Below are positions 16,432-21,099 of a stretch of DNA of 22,877 nucleotides, in pieces (position 1 is the first letter of the stretch; every line of letters starts with the position of its first letter). Origin of the DNA: JALSIF01 sp026981635 [NCBI: bacterium] (GTDB lineage Bacteria > 4484-113 > JALSIF01); contig JALSIF010000104.1 of the NCBI GenBank assembly GCA_026981635.1, positions 1 through 22,877 on the forward strand. The letters are read 5' to 3'. The translations under genes and the position numbers were made by a program. The notes under the pieces were generated by a model. The model had not been told where the DNA came from and did no database searches. It worked only from the letters and a program-made list of their open reading frames with translations.

Positions 16432-17481
16432 GTGAGTCGCACGGAGGCGACGGCAGCCCGCACCACCATCTCACCCGATCCCGCCAAGCCGGGCATCTGG
16501 CTGATACCTTCTCAAGGTGGAGCAAACCTGCTCTTTATGGTTCCCCTGGGCTACGCCCTCTATCGCCACCGCTATCCCCTCTACAACTTCCAACTGGGGG
16601 AGATGCTGGATACCTTCCCCAAGATTGACACCCTGGCCGCCGATGCCATCTCAATCTTTGGCCGCTATACCCGCCGCATGCTCCACAAGCTGGGCGTTGC
16701 CGGGGTGATCTGCTTTGGCTTCAACCACCTGGTCAAGGCGAGGGAGGGGAAACTGCTCAACTTCTTTGCCGCCGGACGGATAAAGCACCTCTCCCTCTTC
16801 TTCTCCGACCCCTTGGAGCTTCTCCCGGAGGGGGAGCGGGAGGCGGCGCTTAGCTCTAGCTACTGGCGGGCGGTCATATTGGATCCTGAAGCCCATGAGG
16901 AGCTGGTAAGGAAACTGCCCTCCACCAGTTGGCACTACCTCCCCCCCGCTACCGACCCAGAGCTCTACTTCCCCATAGCTGGAGTGAATGATGCAGAGGC
17001 ATGGAGCACCGACTTCTCCTATGTGGGGGCCTATTCTGAGGAGGTGGCCGAGATGATGCTTGCTGCCGGGGCGGAGCGCTTCCTCATCTGGGGAGAGCCC
17101 CGCTGGGGTGAGCATCCTGTCCTGGGCAGCCGTTTCCGGGGAAGCGCCCTGCGCGTTGGGGCGCTGAACCGGATCTACAACCTTTCCCGTTTTGTCCTGG
17201 TATTGGACGAGCCTCCCGCCCTGGCTGTCCAGCGGGGCCTGGATGTGCTTGCGGCTGGATCGGTTCCAGTGATGCGGGAAGGGGTAGCCCGGTGGCTGGG
17301 GGAGCTTGTGGGCAAGGGAGAGTTTCCCCTCGTGACAGGGGGTGAAGATCTGCTCAGTCTGGCAAGGGACTCATCCCCGGCAGAGTGGCGAAGCCGACTG
17401 GCCGGTGCCCGCCGGGCTCTGCTTTCCTCCCATACCTGGTATCACCGCATCCCCCGCCTGGTGGAGATTCTGCTTCGCTGA
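16432..17481 (+). CDS. CgeB/YkvP-like glycosyltransferase, possibly acting on flagellin
   Basis: A 349-residue protein resembling CgeB-type family 1 glycosyltransferases (GT-B fold). The N-terminal half begins PGIWLIPSQGGANLLF and continues as an alternating beta/alpha domain; the C-terminal half has FSYVGAYSEEV, NRIYNLSRFVLVL, then RGLDVLAAGSVPVM near residue 268, which is the donor-binding segment of the family, and AGARRALLSSHTWYHRIPRLVEIL at the end. No membrane span is seen, so it is cytosolic. The start is GTG. The flagellin gene with its own sigma-28 promoter begins 216 bases downstream on the same strand, and flagellin glycosyltransferases often sit next to their substrate. That link is inference; a surface-polysaccharide role is possible. 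Confidence 0.75.
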   Translation: MSRTEATAARTTISPDPAKPGIWLIPSQGGANLLFMVPLGYALYRHRYPLYNFQLGEMLDTFPKIDTLAADAISIFGRYTRRMLHKLGVAGVICFGFNHLVKAREGKLLNFFAAGRIKHLSLFFSDPLELLPEGEREAALSSSYWRAVILDPEAHEELVRKLPSTSWHYLPPATDPELYFPIAGVNDAEAWSTDFSYVGAYSEEVAEMMLAAGAERFLIWGEPRWGEHPVLGSRFRGSALRVGALNRIYNLSRFVLVLDEPPALAVQRGLDVLAAGSVPVMREGVARWLGELVGKGEFPLVTGGEDLLSLARDSSPAEWRSRLAGARRALLSSHTWYHRIPRLVEILLR

Positions 17482-17499
17482 CTTTTTGTTCCCTACCCC

Positions 17500-17526
17500 T
17501 AAAGTTCCTCCCTCTGGGGCCGATAC
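17500..17526 (+). promoter_or_regulatory. Sigma-28 (FliA) promoter of the flagellin gene
   Basis: TAAA (17500-17503), a spacer of exactly 15 bases and GCCGATAC (17519-17526), against the flagellar sigma-28 consensus TAAA-N15-GCCGATAA: one mismatch in twelve. It predicts a transcript start near 17533 and a 165-base leader before flagellin. Confidence 0.9.
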
Positions 17527-17555
17527 TCACCATGGCGGCATGTCCGCCGGCAAAT

Positions 17556-17575
17556 CCATCACAAGGAGGTGATGG
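17556..17575 (+). promoter_or_regulatory. Upstream hairpin with AAGGAG hexaloop, candidate CsrA site
   Basis: CCATCAC and GTGATGG form a perfect seven-pair stem with the six-base loop AAGGAG, placing GGA in the loop as CsrA sites require. The local sequence ATCACAAGGAGGT resembles the CsrA consensus. It also contains an 11-base perfect match to the anti-Shine-Dalgarno region, yet the nearest ATG is too close for efficient initiation. Confidence 0.65.
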
Positions 17576-17602
17576 GCGAGGGAAAAATCGTCACTTTGAG
17601 GT

Positions 17603-17640
17603 GGATGCCTCACGCATCCCCGCACCGAGCCCACCGGTGC
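17603..17640 (+). repeat. Two spacer hairpins in the flagellin leader
   Basis: GGATGC/GCATCC with loop CTCAC (17603-17619) and GCACCG/CGGTGC with loop AGCCCAC (17622-17640). They fill the interval between the two AAGGAG hairpins and would shorten the distance between them. Confidence 0.5.
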
Positions 17641-17673
17641 AATAAGGGAAAGGATCCAAGTGGGCAAATCCAC

Positions 17674-17693
17674 GGTTATCAAGGAGGGTAACC
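17674..17693 (+). promoter_or_regulatory. Hairpin with AAGGAG hexaloop covering the flagellin ribosome binding site
   Basis: GGTTATC and GGTAACC pair over seven positions (one T-G wobble) around the loop AAGGAG, which is the flagellin Shine-Dalgarno sequence, centred about 13 bases before the ATG at 17698. Stem length and loop are the same as in the upstream hairpin at 17556-17575. Binding of CsrA here would block ribosome access. Confidence 0.65.
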
Positions 17694-17697
17694 AACC

Positions 17698-20553
17698 ATG
17701 AGCGTTCTACGCATCAACAACAACATCGTCGCTCTCAATGCGAACCGAAACCTCAGGGTGACCGGTTCGCAGCTCGCCAAGAGCCTTGAGCGACTCTCCT
17801 CCGGTCTGCGCATCAACCGCGCGGCCGACGATGCGGCGGGGCTCTCCATTTCGGAGAACCTTCGCTCGCAGATTCGGGGCCTCAACCGAGCCTCCGCCAA
17901 CGCCCTGGACGGGATCTCCCTGATCCAGACGGCCGAGGGAGCGCTCAATGAGGTCACCAACATCCTCCAGCGGATGCGGGAGCTGGCGGTCCAAGCAGCC
18001 AACGGTGTGCTTACCGCCAATGACCGCATCGCCATCCAGCAGGAGATCAACCAGCTCATTGACGAGATCGACCGCATCGCCTCAACCACCGAGTTCAACA
18101 CCCGAAAGCTGCTGGACGGCACGCTGGGTGCCCTGATCTCCACCGACGACCCCACCAAGCTTCGCGCTGCAGTGGTGGGCAACGTGGGCAAGGGGGGCAA
18201 CTTCATCCTCAACAAGCAGGTGGTGGACGTGGGCCAGCTTCAGGTCCAGAAGACTGACGTCTTTACCACCATCCAGCAGCAGGATGCGGTGGGCACCCTA
18301 AACTTCCTCACCACCTACCGGGCCGAGGCCAAGTTCGCCAATGGGGCTACTGTGGGCTCAACCGGCATCACTGAGATGGTGGTGGACCCCCGAAGCACCA
18401 ACACCCTGACCGGCAAGGACGCAACCTTCCAGCTCAGGGCAGACGCCAACGGTGAGACCCTCAACGTGACCGGCGGTGGCCTTGACTTCGCCAACCTCAT
18501 CAACGTCCAGAACCTCAACTCGGGTGACAAGTTCCAGCTCATCGTCTCCACCGCCTCGGGTCTGCAGACCTTTGAGGTGATATACAGCACCGCCGCTGGA
18601 GGAGTGGGCAGCAACGTCTTCAACACGGTGGCGAGCTTTGCTGCCGCCCTCTCCAATGCGGCCTCCACCGTGGTCAACTACGTGAGCTTCCAGACCGGCC
18701 AGTTCCGTCTGGTGCTTTCCAACGGTACCTTCAAGGGCTTCAAGTTCGTGGACGGCTCCCTTGACACCACCGCCCAGTCCGCCGGAGTGCAGAACGCAAG
18801 CAAGGTCTTCCTCTCCTTCGTGAGCCTCGCTTCTTCTTCAAGCTTTGCCTCAAACATTCTCTTTTCCTCGGCCGATGTGCGCTTCCAGGATCAGGATCTC
18901 ACCATCAACGGAGGAGTTCCCCAGCTGGTCAGTAATACTGCCGGTGATGAGCTCCTCTACGTGCGGCTGGCCACCAACGTGCTTGACATGGGCCTGATTA
19001 GCGGCTCCACCAGCTTCCTGGGCTACTCAACCGGAGGCAACACCAAGTTCATCAGCGCGGCCAACTTCTACAGCGTGAGGGCGGGCCGCACCGATACCAT
19101 CGTCACTGGAAAGGACATTGGCGATCCGGCCATCGGACCCAACCAGCTGGTCAAGTTCGGGCAGGTGGTCCAAGTTTCCACCGTTGCCACCGACGGCACT
19201 TTCCTGATCAGCTCGGCAAGTGAGACGACTTACGCAGTCTTCCAATTTGACAACACGGTCTACAACCAGGCAATCATTGACGGCAAGACCCGTGAGCAAG
19301 CCATCTCTCTGGCCAAGGGTAATGCCCTGGGCTACTCCATCAACGGCACCTTCACCACTGTCTTTGACGTGGGAGAGATCTTCAACGGTGATCTGGCCAA
19401 AGTGAGTGCAGGCTCCACTGAGAACCCGCTCACTGGAGTGAGGATCCGCTTTGACGCCATCCTGCAGGCGGGTGAGACTGCCACCTTCAACGTGAGCACC
19501 AACAACGTGCTTACCGCCGACCAGGCGACCACCCTCGGGTCCATCTCCCGCTTCCAGGAGTTCGGCGTCTTCAACGGTCGGGACAACCTCACCTTCCAGA
19601 TCTTCGTCAAGGGCCAGAACCGCAGCGTCACCATCAACGTGACCAAGAGTGACACCCTGGAGACCCTGGCGGGCAAGATCAGCCTCGCCCTGGCCGATCC
19701 CAGCTCCTCCACCGACCTGAACCTGGAGGGAGGCATCAACTTTGACTTTGCCCCCGACCTGGTTCACGTAAACACCATTGGAGTGGCTAAGGGGACCATT
19801 TCCATCACCACCCCGGTGCCGGGAACCGAGTTGGTCATCGCAGGGGACGAAAACTTCCTCAAGGCCCTGAGTCTGATTGAGATCCAGGATGCCAAAGCTC
19901 CCATCTACTCCATCACTGCCACCAACGTGGAGAGTGGTGAGGTGGTGGGCACGGTGAAGACCGACTCCAACGAGATCAACGGCCTGCTTCCGGGGCTCAA
20001 GATCTTCTTTGACCCCACCGTCCAGCTCACCCTTGACCCCTATCCGCCCACCGGGAACTCCAACGATGCAGTCAACTCCAATCCCTTCTTCCGTCCCGAC
20101 ACCCGTCCTGTCCTCTCCATCACCACCGCCACCGACAGCGAGTTCATTCACGTTGCTCCACGGGGCTTCCGCTTGCAGATCGGTCCCAACCAGGGTCAGT
20201 CCATTGACACCTTCCTGCGCGATCTGTCCAGCGAAGCGCTGGGAGTGGCCGGACTGCTGGTGGTGACTGAAGACCTGGCCAGCGAGGCGATCAGTCGGGT
20301 GAGCGAGGCGCTGACGGCGGTCTCCTCTGAGCGAAGCCGCCTCGGAGCCATCCAGAACCGGCTCGAATCAACCATCCGGAACCTGGACATTGCGGCCGAA
20401 AACCTCACCGCCTCCGAGAGCCGTATTCGAGATGTGGACGTGGCCCAGGAGACGGTTGAGGCCACCCGGCTCCAGATCCTGCTCCAGGCCGGTACCGCGG
20501 CCCTCGCCCAGGCCAACCAGCTGCCCCAGGCAGTCCTCCAGCTGCTGCGGTAA
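17698..20553 (+). CDS. fliC: Flagellin, unusually large (951 residues)
   Basis: The filament subunit. The N-terminal D0/D1 region is textbook: INNNIVALNANRNL, QLAKSLERLSSGLRINRAADDAAGLSISE, RGLNRASANALDGISLIQTAEGAL and ELAVQAANG, to about residue 145. The C-terminal D1/D0 region (about 835-951) has RSRLGAIQNRLESTI, ESRIRDVDVAQETVEATRLQILLQAGTA and ends PQAVLQLLR. Between them are about 690 residues of beta-rich, Ser/Thr/Asn-rich, cysteine-free surface domains, including a flagellin-IN-like segment near 615-700 (RSVTINVTKSDTLETLAGKISLAL). Common flagellins have 270-550 residues. Expression is from a near-consensus sigma-28 promoter, and the leader has paired CsrA-like hairpins. A cytosolic glycosyltransferase is encoded just upstream. 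The gene could equally be called hag. Confidence 0.97.
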   Translation: MSVLRINNNIVALNANRNLRVTGSQLAKSLERLSSGLRINRAADDAAGLSISENLRSQIRGLNRASANALDGISLIQTAEGALNEVTNILQRMRELAVQAANGVLTANDRIAIQQEINQLIDEIDRIASTTEFNTRKLLDGTLGALISTDDPTKLRAAVVGNVGKGGNFILNKQVVDVGQLQVQKTDVFTTIQQQDAVGTLNFLTTYRAEAKFANGATVGSTGITEMVVDPRSTNTLTGKDATFQLRADANGETLNVTGGGLDFANLINVQNLNSGDKFQLIVSTASGLQTFEVIYSTAAGGVGSNVFNTVASFAAALSNAASTVVNYVSFQTGQFRLVLSNGTFKGFKFVDGSLDTTAQSAGVQNASKVFLSFVSLASSSSFASNILFSSADVRFQDQDLTINGGVPQLVSNTAGDELLYVRLATNVLDMGLISGSTSFLGYSTGGNTKFISAANFYSVRAGRTDTIVTGKDIGDPAIGPNQLVKFGQVVQVSTVATDGTFLISSASETTYAVFQFDNTVYNQAIIDGKTREQAISLAKGNALGYSINGTFTTVFDVGEIFNGDLAKVSAGSTENPLTGVRIRFDAILQAGETATFNVSTNNVLTADQATTLGSISRFQEFGVFNGRDNLTFQIFVKGQNRSVTINVTKSDTLETLAGKISLALADPSSSTDLNLEGGINFDFAPDLVHVNTIGVAKGTISITTPVPGTELVIAGDENFLKALSLIEIQDAKAPIYSITATNVESGEVVGTVKTDSNEINGLLPGLKIFFDPTVQLTLDPYPPTGNSNDAVNSNPFFRPDTRPVLSITTATDSEFIHVAPRGFRLQIGPNQGQSIDTFLRDLSSEALGVAGLLVVTEDLASEAISRVSEALTAVSSERSRLGAIQNRLESTIRNLDIAAENLTASESRIRDVDVAQETVEATRLQILLQAGTAALAQANQLPQAVLQLLR

Positions 20554-20572: not shown

Positions 20573-20628
20573 AGCTGGTGCGGGGGTGCCACCCCTCCAA
20601 GGAGGGGGCCTGGCCCCCCGCACCAGCT
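20573..20628 (+). terminator. Long stem-loop after flagellin
   Basis: AGCTGGTGCGGGGG (20573-20586) and CCCCCGCACCAGCT (20615-20628) form a perfect 14-pair stem, continued inside by GCC/GGC and by CCCCTCC/GGAGGGG. No T-run follows, so it is more likely an mRNA 3'-end stabiliser, processing site or partial terminator between flagellin and flaG than a simple intrinsic terminator. The apex again contains AAGGAG (20599-20604). Confidence 0.6.
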
Positions 20629-20658
20629 GGGGCGATCTGTCTTGGGCTGGAGGGCACG

Positions 20659-21099
20659 ATGGCGGTAGGAGCGGTACAAGTTGGTTCCGTCAGGGTGGCG
20701 CCTGAGCTCAAGCGGCAGGCGGTCACCAGTCCTAAGGCACCGTCCTTCTCGCCTATAAAGCAGAGGCCAGCCTCACCCCCACCGGCGTTGTCTGTTCCCC
20801 AGCAGGGGTCCCACACTCCCCAGTCCCCCCCTCCCACCCCCCCTCCCAAGAAGGAGCTTTCCCCAGCCGAATACCTAGCCATGCTTAGACGGATGAATCT
20901 GACCTATGATCTCTTTGAGATTCAGGCCAACTACCGCTACGACAAAGAGTTGGGAATGGTAAGGGTGGTGGTGAGAAACACGGTGACTGGAGAGGTGATC
21001 CGTCGCATACCTCCCTATGAGCCATACCGTCCCATCTCCCTCCATCACAGCAAGGATCAAGCTGACGACTCATCTAACCGGATTGACCTGGTAGGGTAG
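20659..21099 (+). CDS. flaG: FlaG-family flagellar protein
   Basis: A 146-residue protein. The first 70 residues are Pro/Ser/Gln-rich and probably disordered (SPPPALSVPQQG, PPPTPPPKK). The C-terminal part is the FlaG domain: FEIQANYRYDKELGMVRVVVRNTVTGEVIRRIPP, with the typical TGEVIRxIPP signature. FlaG proteins are encoded between flagellin and fliD and affect filament length; the mechanism is not well known. The start ATG follows a GGAGGG by four bases; the frame is open upstream to 20578, but that part overlaps the right half of the long stem-loop and is unlikely to be coding. Gene order flagellin-flaG-fliD is the usual one, which supports the assignment. Confidence 0.9.
   Translation: MAVGAVQVGSVRVAPELKRQAVTSPKAPSFSPIKQRPASPPPALSVPQQGSHTPQSPPPTPPPKKELSPAEYLAMLRRMNLTYDLFEIQANYRYDKELGMVRVVVRNTVTGEVIRRIPPYEPYRPISLHHSKDQADDSSNRIDLVG

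What the first reader, a model, noticed from the sequence alone, without database searches (positions are those of the whole stretch)
17556..17693. Twin hairpins with identical AAGGAG hexaloops in the flagellin leader: probable dual-site CsrA control
Seen: two hairpins, 17556-17575 and 17674-17693, each with a seven-pair stem and the same six-base loop AAGGAG. The second loop is the flagellin ribosome binding site. The GGA motifs are 118 bases apart with two compact hairpins between. The stem sequences differ completely while loop and stem length match, which suggests selection on structure. Known: CsrA dimers bind GGA in hairpin loops, often one site on the Shine-Dalgarno and one upstream, and B. 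subtilis hag is controlled this way through CsrA and FliW. Inference: the same circuit acts here, on an oversized flagellin.
Basis: partly seen in the sequence, partly recalled or inferred. Interest (0 to 1): 0.75.

Follow-up and report, generated by a model that had tools for sequence, protein, structure and literature searches.

The report
Flagellin leader read by single-chain CsrA
The flagellin message here carries two hairpins that look like docking sites for the translation repressor CsrA, a known control circuit, but the CsrA of this little-studied bacterial lineage is two copies fused into one chain with apparently only one complete RNA-binding face, so the usual two-site bridging may not apply.

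Summary
Observation confirmed. Both hairpins are at the stated coordinates, each with seven pairs and loop AAGGAG; the second loop is the flagellin Shine-Dalgarno (SD). None of 20,000 leader shuffles has two such hairpins.

CsrA control is well supported. The genome has fliW and csrA. The SD hairpin, C-ANGGAG-G, recurs in 12 of 14 flagellin leaders examined in the class, with strong covariation (5 of 7 pairs with changes on both sides). The upstream site recurs in some leaders only. Twin-hexaloop flagellin leaders under CsrA and FliW are known (Campylobacter flaA) and also appear here in distant genomes.

The dual-site part needs revision. In this class csrA encodes one chain with two CsrA domains (9 of 9 csrA-positive genomes; 1 of 98 other csrA-positive genomes surveyed). 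Beta-1 of domain 1 and the arginine-44 strand of domain 2 are conserved; domain 1 lacks that arginine in all nine, and beta-1 of domain 2 varies. This predicts a built-in pseudo-dimer with one complete RNA face. The upstream site also lies farther from the SD (nearest 61-138 bases) than in most other csrA+fliW+ leaders read (22-63; one at 81). I infer separate single-site binding events, relieved by FliW. Nothing was tested at the bench.

The parts
17500..17525 (+). sigma-28-like flagellar promoter, TAAAG-N15-CCGATA; would put the transcript start near 17533 (inferred)
   Evidence: only match of TAAAGN{13,17}CCGATA in the window, none in 100 shuffles; the sigma-28 consensus is recalled
17556..17575 (+). 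upstream CsrA-site hairpin, loop AAGGAG 17563-17568, closing pair C-G (CANGGANG form)
   Evidence: counterparts in some class leaders
17600..17640 (+). two predicted compact hairpins between the CsrA sites (about 17600-17621 and 17622-17640)
   Evidence: minimum-free-energy fold
17674..17693 (+). Shine-Dalgarno hairpin, loop AAGGAG 17681-17686; CsrA bound here would block the ribosome (inferred)
   Evidence: covariation in 12 leaders
17698..20553 (+). flagellin, 951 aa (oversized; close relatives have open frames of 896-1144 aa)
   Evidence: Pfam Flagellin_N E 1.2e-46 and Flagellin_C E 4e-27; frames of relatives
20578..21099 (+). FlaG, next flagellar gene
   Evidence: Pfam FlaG E 2.3e-8

Best explanation
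The two hairpins are CsrA operators of the flagellin mRNA, part of the flagellin-FliW-CsrA homeostasis circuit. Free CsrA binds the AAGGAG hexaloop that holds the Shine-Dalgarno sequence and keeps 30S subunits off; FliW, freed when flagellin is exported, takes CsrA away. In this lineage CsrA is a single chain of two CsrA domains that folds as a built-in pseudo-dimer. Its one complete RNA face is made of beta-1 of domain 1 and beta-5 of domain 2; the other face has lost the essential arginine. The two hairpins would then be bound by two separate chains and not bridged by one protein; the SD hairpin does the blocking, and the upstream one adds affinity, local concentration or CsrA titration. Shown by computation: the hairpins, covariation of the SD hairpin, presence of fliW and of the two-domain csrA, the asymmetric conservation. 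Inferred: binding, repression, the pseudo-dimer geometry, the single working face and FliW antagonism.
For: Own genome: FliW (E 1e-36) and one csrA ORF of 171 aa with two CsrA matches. Class: FliW is found in the same 6 of 10 genomes that have flagellin; in G002 fliW and the two-domain csrA follow one another behind an ORF end that looks like flgL (flgL by eye), and in G004 fliW and csrA are neighbours. SD hairpin in 12 of 14 flagellin leaders examined; on those 12, 96.4% of cells paired, 5 of 7 pairs with double changes, 0 of 500 shuffles reach the covariation score, slid registers far lower. Loop and closing pair C-ANGGAN-G equal the published high-affinity form. CsrA: in 9 of 9 sequences beta-1 of domain 1 keeps LVxTRxxGE and domain 2 keeps the R44 position; beta-1 of domain 2 has no invariant column and domain 1 has no arginine at the R44 position (the strand of domain 1 placed by eye). 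Pfam matches of domain 1 stop at profile position 37-41 of 53. Model of the G007 protein: domain 2 fits CsrA 2bti_A at 0.9 A over 58 residues; RsmN chains align from residue 1 to 113 of the model, 54 residues aligned. Best solved sequence match is 5dmb_D, E 1.6e-12, the CsrA of a complex with a flagellar assembly factor (title). Upstream-to-SD spacing 22-63 in the 23 of 58 best-flagellin leaders of distant csrA+fliW+ genomes that have an upstream hairpin; nearest 61, 104, 118 in the class.
Against: No binding or expression data. In 4 of 9 chains (G001, G005, G007, G008) beta-1 of domain 2 keeps a near-canonical TRK or SRK, and G001 has an arginine two positions after the R44 place in domain 1, so the second face may not be dead everywhere. 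In distant genomes the SD hairpin is not significantly tied to csrA (19 of 58 csrA+fliW+ against 1 of 12 without csrA with 4 or more pairs, Fisher one-sided p 0.08; upstream hairpin 23 of 58 against 3 of 12, p 0.27). A second flagellin gene of G033, a distant csrA+fliW+ genome, has a spacing of 81, and G126 (fliW found, csrA not found) has 111, so wide spacing is not unique to the class. The spacing difference rests on 3 leaders of one clade (p 0.005, not phylogenetically independent). The SD hairpin of G007_C43 is not favoured in the fold (0.00), nor are the upstream stems of G004 (0.25) and G005_C2 (0.00-0.13). Alignments A1 and A2 hold only leaders chosen for such hairpins. The pseudo-dimer model has pTM 0.67 and I could not see coordinates; unrelated chains score as high (top row is an S-layer domain, Z 7.3; all Z under 8). 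The second model (G002) is poorer, pLDDT 69, pTM 0.56, with parts of domain 1 under 50 and no RsmN among the 50 rows shown.
Confidence: 0.7

Rival explanations
1. Same circuit, but two fused chains pair with each other (domain 1 of one with domain 2 of the other), giving an assembly with two complete RNA faces that can still bridge two hairpins like an ordinary CsrA dimer.
For: Ordinary CsrA has two faces, each made by strands of opposing monomers (PMC7652899, passages); 6 of 12 class leaders with an SD hairpin keep an upstream ANGGAN hairpin of 3 or more pairs, and in 4 of 14 leaders it is well formed in the fold (G000, G002, G001_C9, G007_C43).
Against: About 19 residues lie between the last strand of domain 1 and the first of domain 2 in the model, enough in principle for an internal fold, but this does not exclude a swap. 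Spacing is 118 in the window and 61-138 in the class, mostly outside the published bridging range.
Confidence: 0.22
2. The SD hairpin is a plain RNA element (for example display or partial masking of the SD, or a thermosensor) that does not need CsrA; the upstream hairpin is unrelated.
For: The SD hairpin is better conserved than the upstream one; upstream hairpins also occur in 3 of 12 leaders of genomes where csrA was not found; the tie to csrA outside the class is not significant.
Against: Loop and closing pair match the CsrA consensus in all 19 aligned class hairpins (chosen by the ANGGAN loop, but not by the closing C-G), while the outer stem varies; fliW and csrA co-occur with the flagellin genes; the three csrA-less genomes with upstream hairpins are 84-91% complete and one of them, G126, has fliW.
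Confidence: 0.08
3. The upstream AAGGAGGTGAT is a ribosome site for a short leader peptide (39 codons, ATG 17572, TAA 17689-17691 inside the SD hairpin) whose translation couples to flagellin.
For: The ORF exists and ends in the SD hairpin.
Against: Only 2 bases lie between GGAGG and the ATG; the start codon there is ATG in 2 of 5 class leaders examined; the peptides differ in length and share no similarity that I could see (compared by eye).
Confidence: 0.04

Closest known systems
flaA leader of Campylobacter jejuni with CsrA and FliW (PMC4894983, passages read)
   Same: Two hairpins with ANGGA hexaloops of the CANGGANG form, the second covering the ribosome site, compensatory changes in relatives, FliW antagonist
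   Different: Spacing there is 21 bases and one ordinary dimer is thought to bind both; here 118 bases and a two-domain CsrA
hag leader of Bacillus subtilis with CsrA and FliW (PMC7652899, passages read)
   Same: Flagellin mRNA with two CsrA sites, one on the SD; FliW relieves repression
   Different: Ordinary one-domain CsrA (recalled); here a two-domain chain and a remote upstream site
RsmN (RsmF) of Pseudomonas aeruginosa (PMC3791407, start of abstract and passages read)
   Same: CsrA family with a rearranged chain; aligns from residue 1 to 113 of the predicted model
   Different: RsmN is a single rearranged CsrA domain (inserted helix recalled) that works as a dimer; here two CsrA domains are fused
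Engineered E. coli CsrA with R44A in one polypeptide of the dimer (Mercante 2009, as told in PMC7652899, passages)
   Same: One intact and one disabled RNA face
   Different: That was made in the laboratory; here it appears fixed in a natural lineage

Membership tests
CsrA-FliW flagellin control circuit | CsrA site overlapping the flagellin Shine-Dalgarno | tested here: met
   C-AAGGAG-G hexaloop at 17681-17686 on the SD; C-ANGGAG-G hexaloop in 12 of 14 class leaders. By sequence and fold, not by binding
CsrA-FliW flagellin control circuit | second CsrA site upstream in the leader | tested here: met
   17556-17575; not general in the class
CsrA-FliW flagellin control circuit | csrA and fliW in the genome | tested here: met
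CsrA-FliW flagellin control circuit | two sites within bridging distance of one CsrA dimer (10-63 bases) | tested here: not met
   118 bases linear distance; folding between the sites could shorten it. Not a strict requirement of the circuit
CsrA-FliW flagellin control circuit | CsrA represses translation and FliW relieves it | not testable with these tools
   needs binding and expression assays
CsrA protein family (PF02599) | match above the curated cut-off | tested here: met
   77 bits against 27, two stretches; NCBIfam NF002469 76.6 against 73, while TIGR00202 is just below its cut-off, 69.5 against 70.1
CsrA protein family (PF02599) | one domain of about 60 residues acting as a homodimer with two identical RNA faces | tested here: not met
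   two domains in one chain; domain 1 without the R44 arginine in 9 of 9; oligomeric state not tested
CsrA protein family (PF02599) | CsrA fold | tested here: met
   predicted models only: domain 2 of G007 Z 6.2, rmsd 0.9 A over 58 residues to 2bti_A; of G002 Z 5.5, 1.4 A over 58

The most novel reading that the evidence does not exclude
A whole bacterial class (one genome is titled UBP7) has replaced the homodimeric CsrA by a single-chain pseudo-dimer in which one RNA-binding face has died. With one face, CsrA can no longer clamp two hairpins, and the flagellin leaders have answered by keeping a strong SD hairpin while the upstream site drifted out of bridging range or was lost.
Probability: 0.5. 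Interest if true: 0.72.

Novelty: new variant of a known kind. Interest (0 to 1): 0.6.

Why it matters
CsrA is a textbook two-faced dimer; in the passages I read, the need to bridge two sites was probed with engineered R44A mutants. A lineage that carries a one-faced CsrA would be a natural experiment: its targets show what a CsrA operator looks like without bridging. The fusion would also offer a monomeric CsrA for structural and binding work. I found no report of such a CsrA in the library (searches; open-licence papers only).

Tried and rejected
Rfam at gathering cut-offs gave only two tRNAs in the window. The sigma-70 scan found no promoter in 17460-17720; its one terminator-like site, 17460-17479, straddles the end of the upstream gene. 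A wider CsrA regulon: I read 15 class-wide hits of model R1 outside the extracted leaders. One is a further flagellin, two lie together ahead of a 38-codon ORF, and of the other 12, 8 lie inside open frames of 150 codons or more; I treat those as chance. That search scored at most 150 of 514-1184 candidates per genome and missed the window's own SD hairpin, so it cannot exclude other targets. Association of the hairpins with csrA outside the class was not significant. The second structure model (G002) was too weak to confirm the pseudo-dimer. In the phage records the 4 matches to the two-domain protein cover 37-46% of it. The NCBI taxonomy has no name starting with UBP7.

Rows dropped: L020 (G014), no start codon found. 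Of 97 genomes outside the class with a flagellin match at E 1e-20, 71 were taken; the other 26 were not. Second and further flagellins of those genomes were not used there; some were read, among them one with spacing 81. G005:C57 was fetched but its match begins at query residue 18 and its leader was not used. G005:C59, a flagellin start cut by the contig end, carries the hairpin but is not in the counts. Two upstream ANGGAN hairpins (G007_C43 -107, G001_C34 -216) were left out of alignment A2 because they lack the CAC/GTG stem. In one search, 9 of 80 loci could not be read in the frame used. My note gives the leader ATG as 17571; it is 17572.

Full report
What is there. The window encodes flagellar export genes (FliP, FliO), other genes, and at 17698-20553 a 951-residue flagellin followed by FlaG. 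The leader has a sigma-28-like promoter at 17500-17525, the only such match in the window and none in 100 shuffles (consensus recalled). Both are in the minimum-free-energy fold of 17533-17700, with mean pair probabilities 0.98 and 0.99 in a 200-base fold.

Chance. Among 201 ANGGAN hexamers on both strands of the window, 3 lie in a hexaloop with at least 5 pairs: these two and one at 16441. In 20,000 dinucleotide shuffles of the intergenic leader, 14 held at least one such hairpin with 7 or more pairs and none held two. The motif CANGGAGG alone is common (16 in the window against 9.6 expected), so the stems carry the signal.

Relatives. The held genomes include nine others of the same class (G001-G009). 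Six of the ten have flagellin genes. I extracted 14 leaders. In 12 of 14 the SD sits in a C-ANGGAG-G hexaloop with at least 5 pairs. The exceptions are G001_C34 (no ANGGAN loop on the SD) and G005_C66 (a divergent copy, 60% identity). On the 12, 96.4% of cells pair, 5 of 7 pairs show changes on both sides, none of 500 shuffles reaches the covariation score of 0.712, and slid registers stay at or below 0.182. The set was chosen for having the hairpin, so the percentage paired is inflated; the double changes are less affected. Mean pair probability of the SD stem is 0.57 or more in 11 of 12 and 0.00 in G007_C43.

The upstream site is less general. Seven sites with a CAC-ANGGAG-GTG core occur in five leaders: G000, G004, G002, G005_C2 (three) and G001_C9. 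Their outer stems pair less well (79.6% of cells; 9 of 500 shuffles reach the covariation score). The fold supports those of G000, G002 and G001_C9 (0.93-0.98) but not those of G004 (0.25) or G005_C2 (0.00-0.13); a short three-pair AAGGAT hairpin in G007_C43 is also well formed (0.97). Six of the 12 leaders with an SD hairpin have no upstream ANGGAN hairpin of 3 or more pairs within 220 bases. A model built without the window's own hairpins ranks both first and second in the window, E 7.3e-5 and 0.038.

Specificity. With a model of all 19 hairpins, 11 matches over the 10 genomes have E under 0.01. Ten are flagellin leaders, but nine of the eleven were in the training set and match by construction. 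The two new ones are G005:C59:32353, a flagellin start by its sequence, and G005:C17:22141, just downstream of a flagellin gene and ahead of a 38-codon ORF. At most 150 candidates per genome were scored; the window's own SD hairpin was missed this way and found by the unfiltered search.

The regulator. The window's genome (1.75 Mb, 85% complete) has FliW (E 1e-36) and csrA. The csrA product is one chain of 171 residues with two CsrA domains. The same architecture is found in 9 of 10 class genomes, with no further CsrA match at E 0.001; the tenth genome (77% complete) has no CsrA match. FliW is found in exactly the six genomes with flagellin. In G002 fliW and then the two-domain csrA follow an ORF end that looks like flgL (flgL by eye), and in G004 fliW and csrA are neighbours, so I take this to be the ordinary csrA. 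Across 289 genomes, 107 have CsrA; two matches in one open frame occur in 9 of 9 class members with CsrA and in 1 of 98 others. One class record is titled 'UBP7'; that this is a candidate phylum is recalled.

Asymmetry. In nine sequences, beta-1 of domain 1 has 6 of 9 invariant columns (L, V, T, R, G, E); beta-1 of domain 2 has 0 of 9. The R44 position is arginine in domain 2 of all nine and in domain 1 of none (the domain-1 strand was placed by eye, and G001 has an arginine two positions later). Pfam matches of domain 1 stop at profile position 37-41 of 53. In ordinary CsrA each RNA face is beta-1 of one monomer with beta-5 of the other, and R44A eliminates regulation (PMC7652899, passages). 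Conservation of one cross-domain pair is what a pseudo-dimer with one working face predicts. If faces were formed within a domain, G000, G003, G004 and G006 would have no intact face. Against this: in G001, G005, G007 and G008 beta-1 of domain 2 is still near-canonical (TRK or SRK), so their second face lacks only the arginine half.

Structure. AlphaFold2 on the G007 protein with 7 sequences gave pLDDT 79.5 and pTM 0.67, ten-residue block means of 87-95 over residues 1-40 and 61-110, and ten strands in two CsrA-like sets. Domain 2 fits 2bti_A at 0.9 A over 58 residues. The FliW-bound CsrA 5dmb_D aligns over residues 63-136, and RsmN chains align from 1 to 113 (54 residues); an unrelated S-layer domain tops the list at Z 7.3. 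Sequence search agrees on domain 2: best solved match 5dmb_D, E 1.6e-12, residues 64-140. A second model (G002) is weaker, pLDDT 69.1, and adds only the fit of domain 2, tied with unrelated chains.

Spacing. I read the best flagellin leader of 71 of 97 flagellin-bearing genomes outside the class and could use 70 (58 with csrA and fliW; 12 without csrA, one of which has fliW). An upstream ANGGAN hexaloop with 5 or more pairs is present in 23 of 58, in each case 22-63 bases from the SD loop, close to the published bridging range of 10-63. It is also present in 3 of 12 without csrA, at 19, 51 and 111. A second flagellin of G033 has a spacing of 81. By the same rule the class has three leaders with nearest spacing 61, 104 and 118 (Mann-Whitney one-sided p 0.005); with 3 or more pairs the class values are 61, 92, 95, 104, 118 and 138. 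They are one clade, so this is a lead and not a test. The SD hairpin frequency in csrA+fliW+ and csrA-less genomes does not differ significantly (19 of 58 against 1 of 12, p 0.08).

Comparison with the known. The closest case is C. jejuni flaA: two hexaloops of CANGGANG form, the second on the ribosome site, compensatory changes, 21-base spacing, FliW antagonist (PMC4894983, passages). B. subtilis hag is also bound at two sites, one on the SD (PMC7652899, passages). So the twin-hairpin leader is a new member of a known kind. What departs from the known is the two-domain, apparently one-faced CsrA and the remote upstream site. I found no paper on such a CsrA; the library holds open-licence papers only. 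PMC7366521, on CsrA distribution, has no occurrence of 'tandem' or 'fusion' (find).

Verdict. CsrA control of this flagellin is likely. The bridging reading is doubtful in this lineage. The unexpected finding is the regulator.

Noticed in passing
L147 (G281:C1:89070-89339) and L261-L263: A 90-residue protein made of two short CsrA-like halves, with beta-1 kept in the first half and the arginine-bearing beta-5 in the second; matches over nearly the full length in 4 genomes of one genus (one with a stop inside). G281 has 17 CsrA matches. Looks like an independent, compact single-chain CsrA.
   Followed up: partly
L001, L034-L038, L041 upstream of csrA: In several class genomes a TATAAT-like box ends about 6-15 bases before the csrA start codon (G002 and G004 with a good -35), which would make the csrA mRNA leaderless or nearly so; not seen in G003 or G006 (G008 by eye).
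   Followed up: partly
L035 (G008) against L034 (G007): G008, in which flagellin and FliW were not found (84% complete), has a shortened and altered CsrA C-terminus compared with its genus mate G007, which has both; would fit the C-terminus being the FliW-binding part.
   Followed up: no
L192 613-665 (G005:C17:22112-22164): Two SD-type CsrA hairpins side by side, after a flagellin gene and ahead of a 38-codon ORF (MSKPRIETHPKVT...).
   Followed up: partly
L194 (G001:C34:82252-82275, minus strand): An SD-type hairpin GTGAGTTC-AAGGAG-GAACTGAC directly before the ATG of a 69-codon ORF; a possible further CsrA target (E 0.16).
   Followed up: no
window 16432-16455: A weaker ANGGAN hexaloop hairpin (5 pairs) covers the GTG start of the glycosyltransferase-like ORF before the flagellin; third best match of both models in the window.
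   Followed up: no
window 17572-17691: 39-codon ORF that starts in the upstream hairpin and stops in the SD hairpin; no conserved counterpart seen.
   Followed up: partly
L052 (G005:C2 flagellin leader): Three successive upstream CAC-ANGGAG-GTG sites 37-40 bases apart ahead of one flagellin gene, although their stems are not favoured in the fold.
   Followed up: partly
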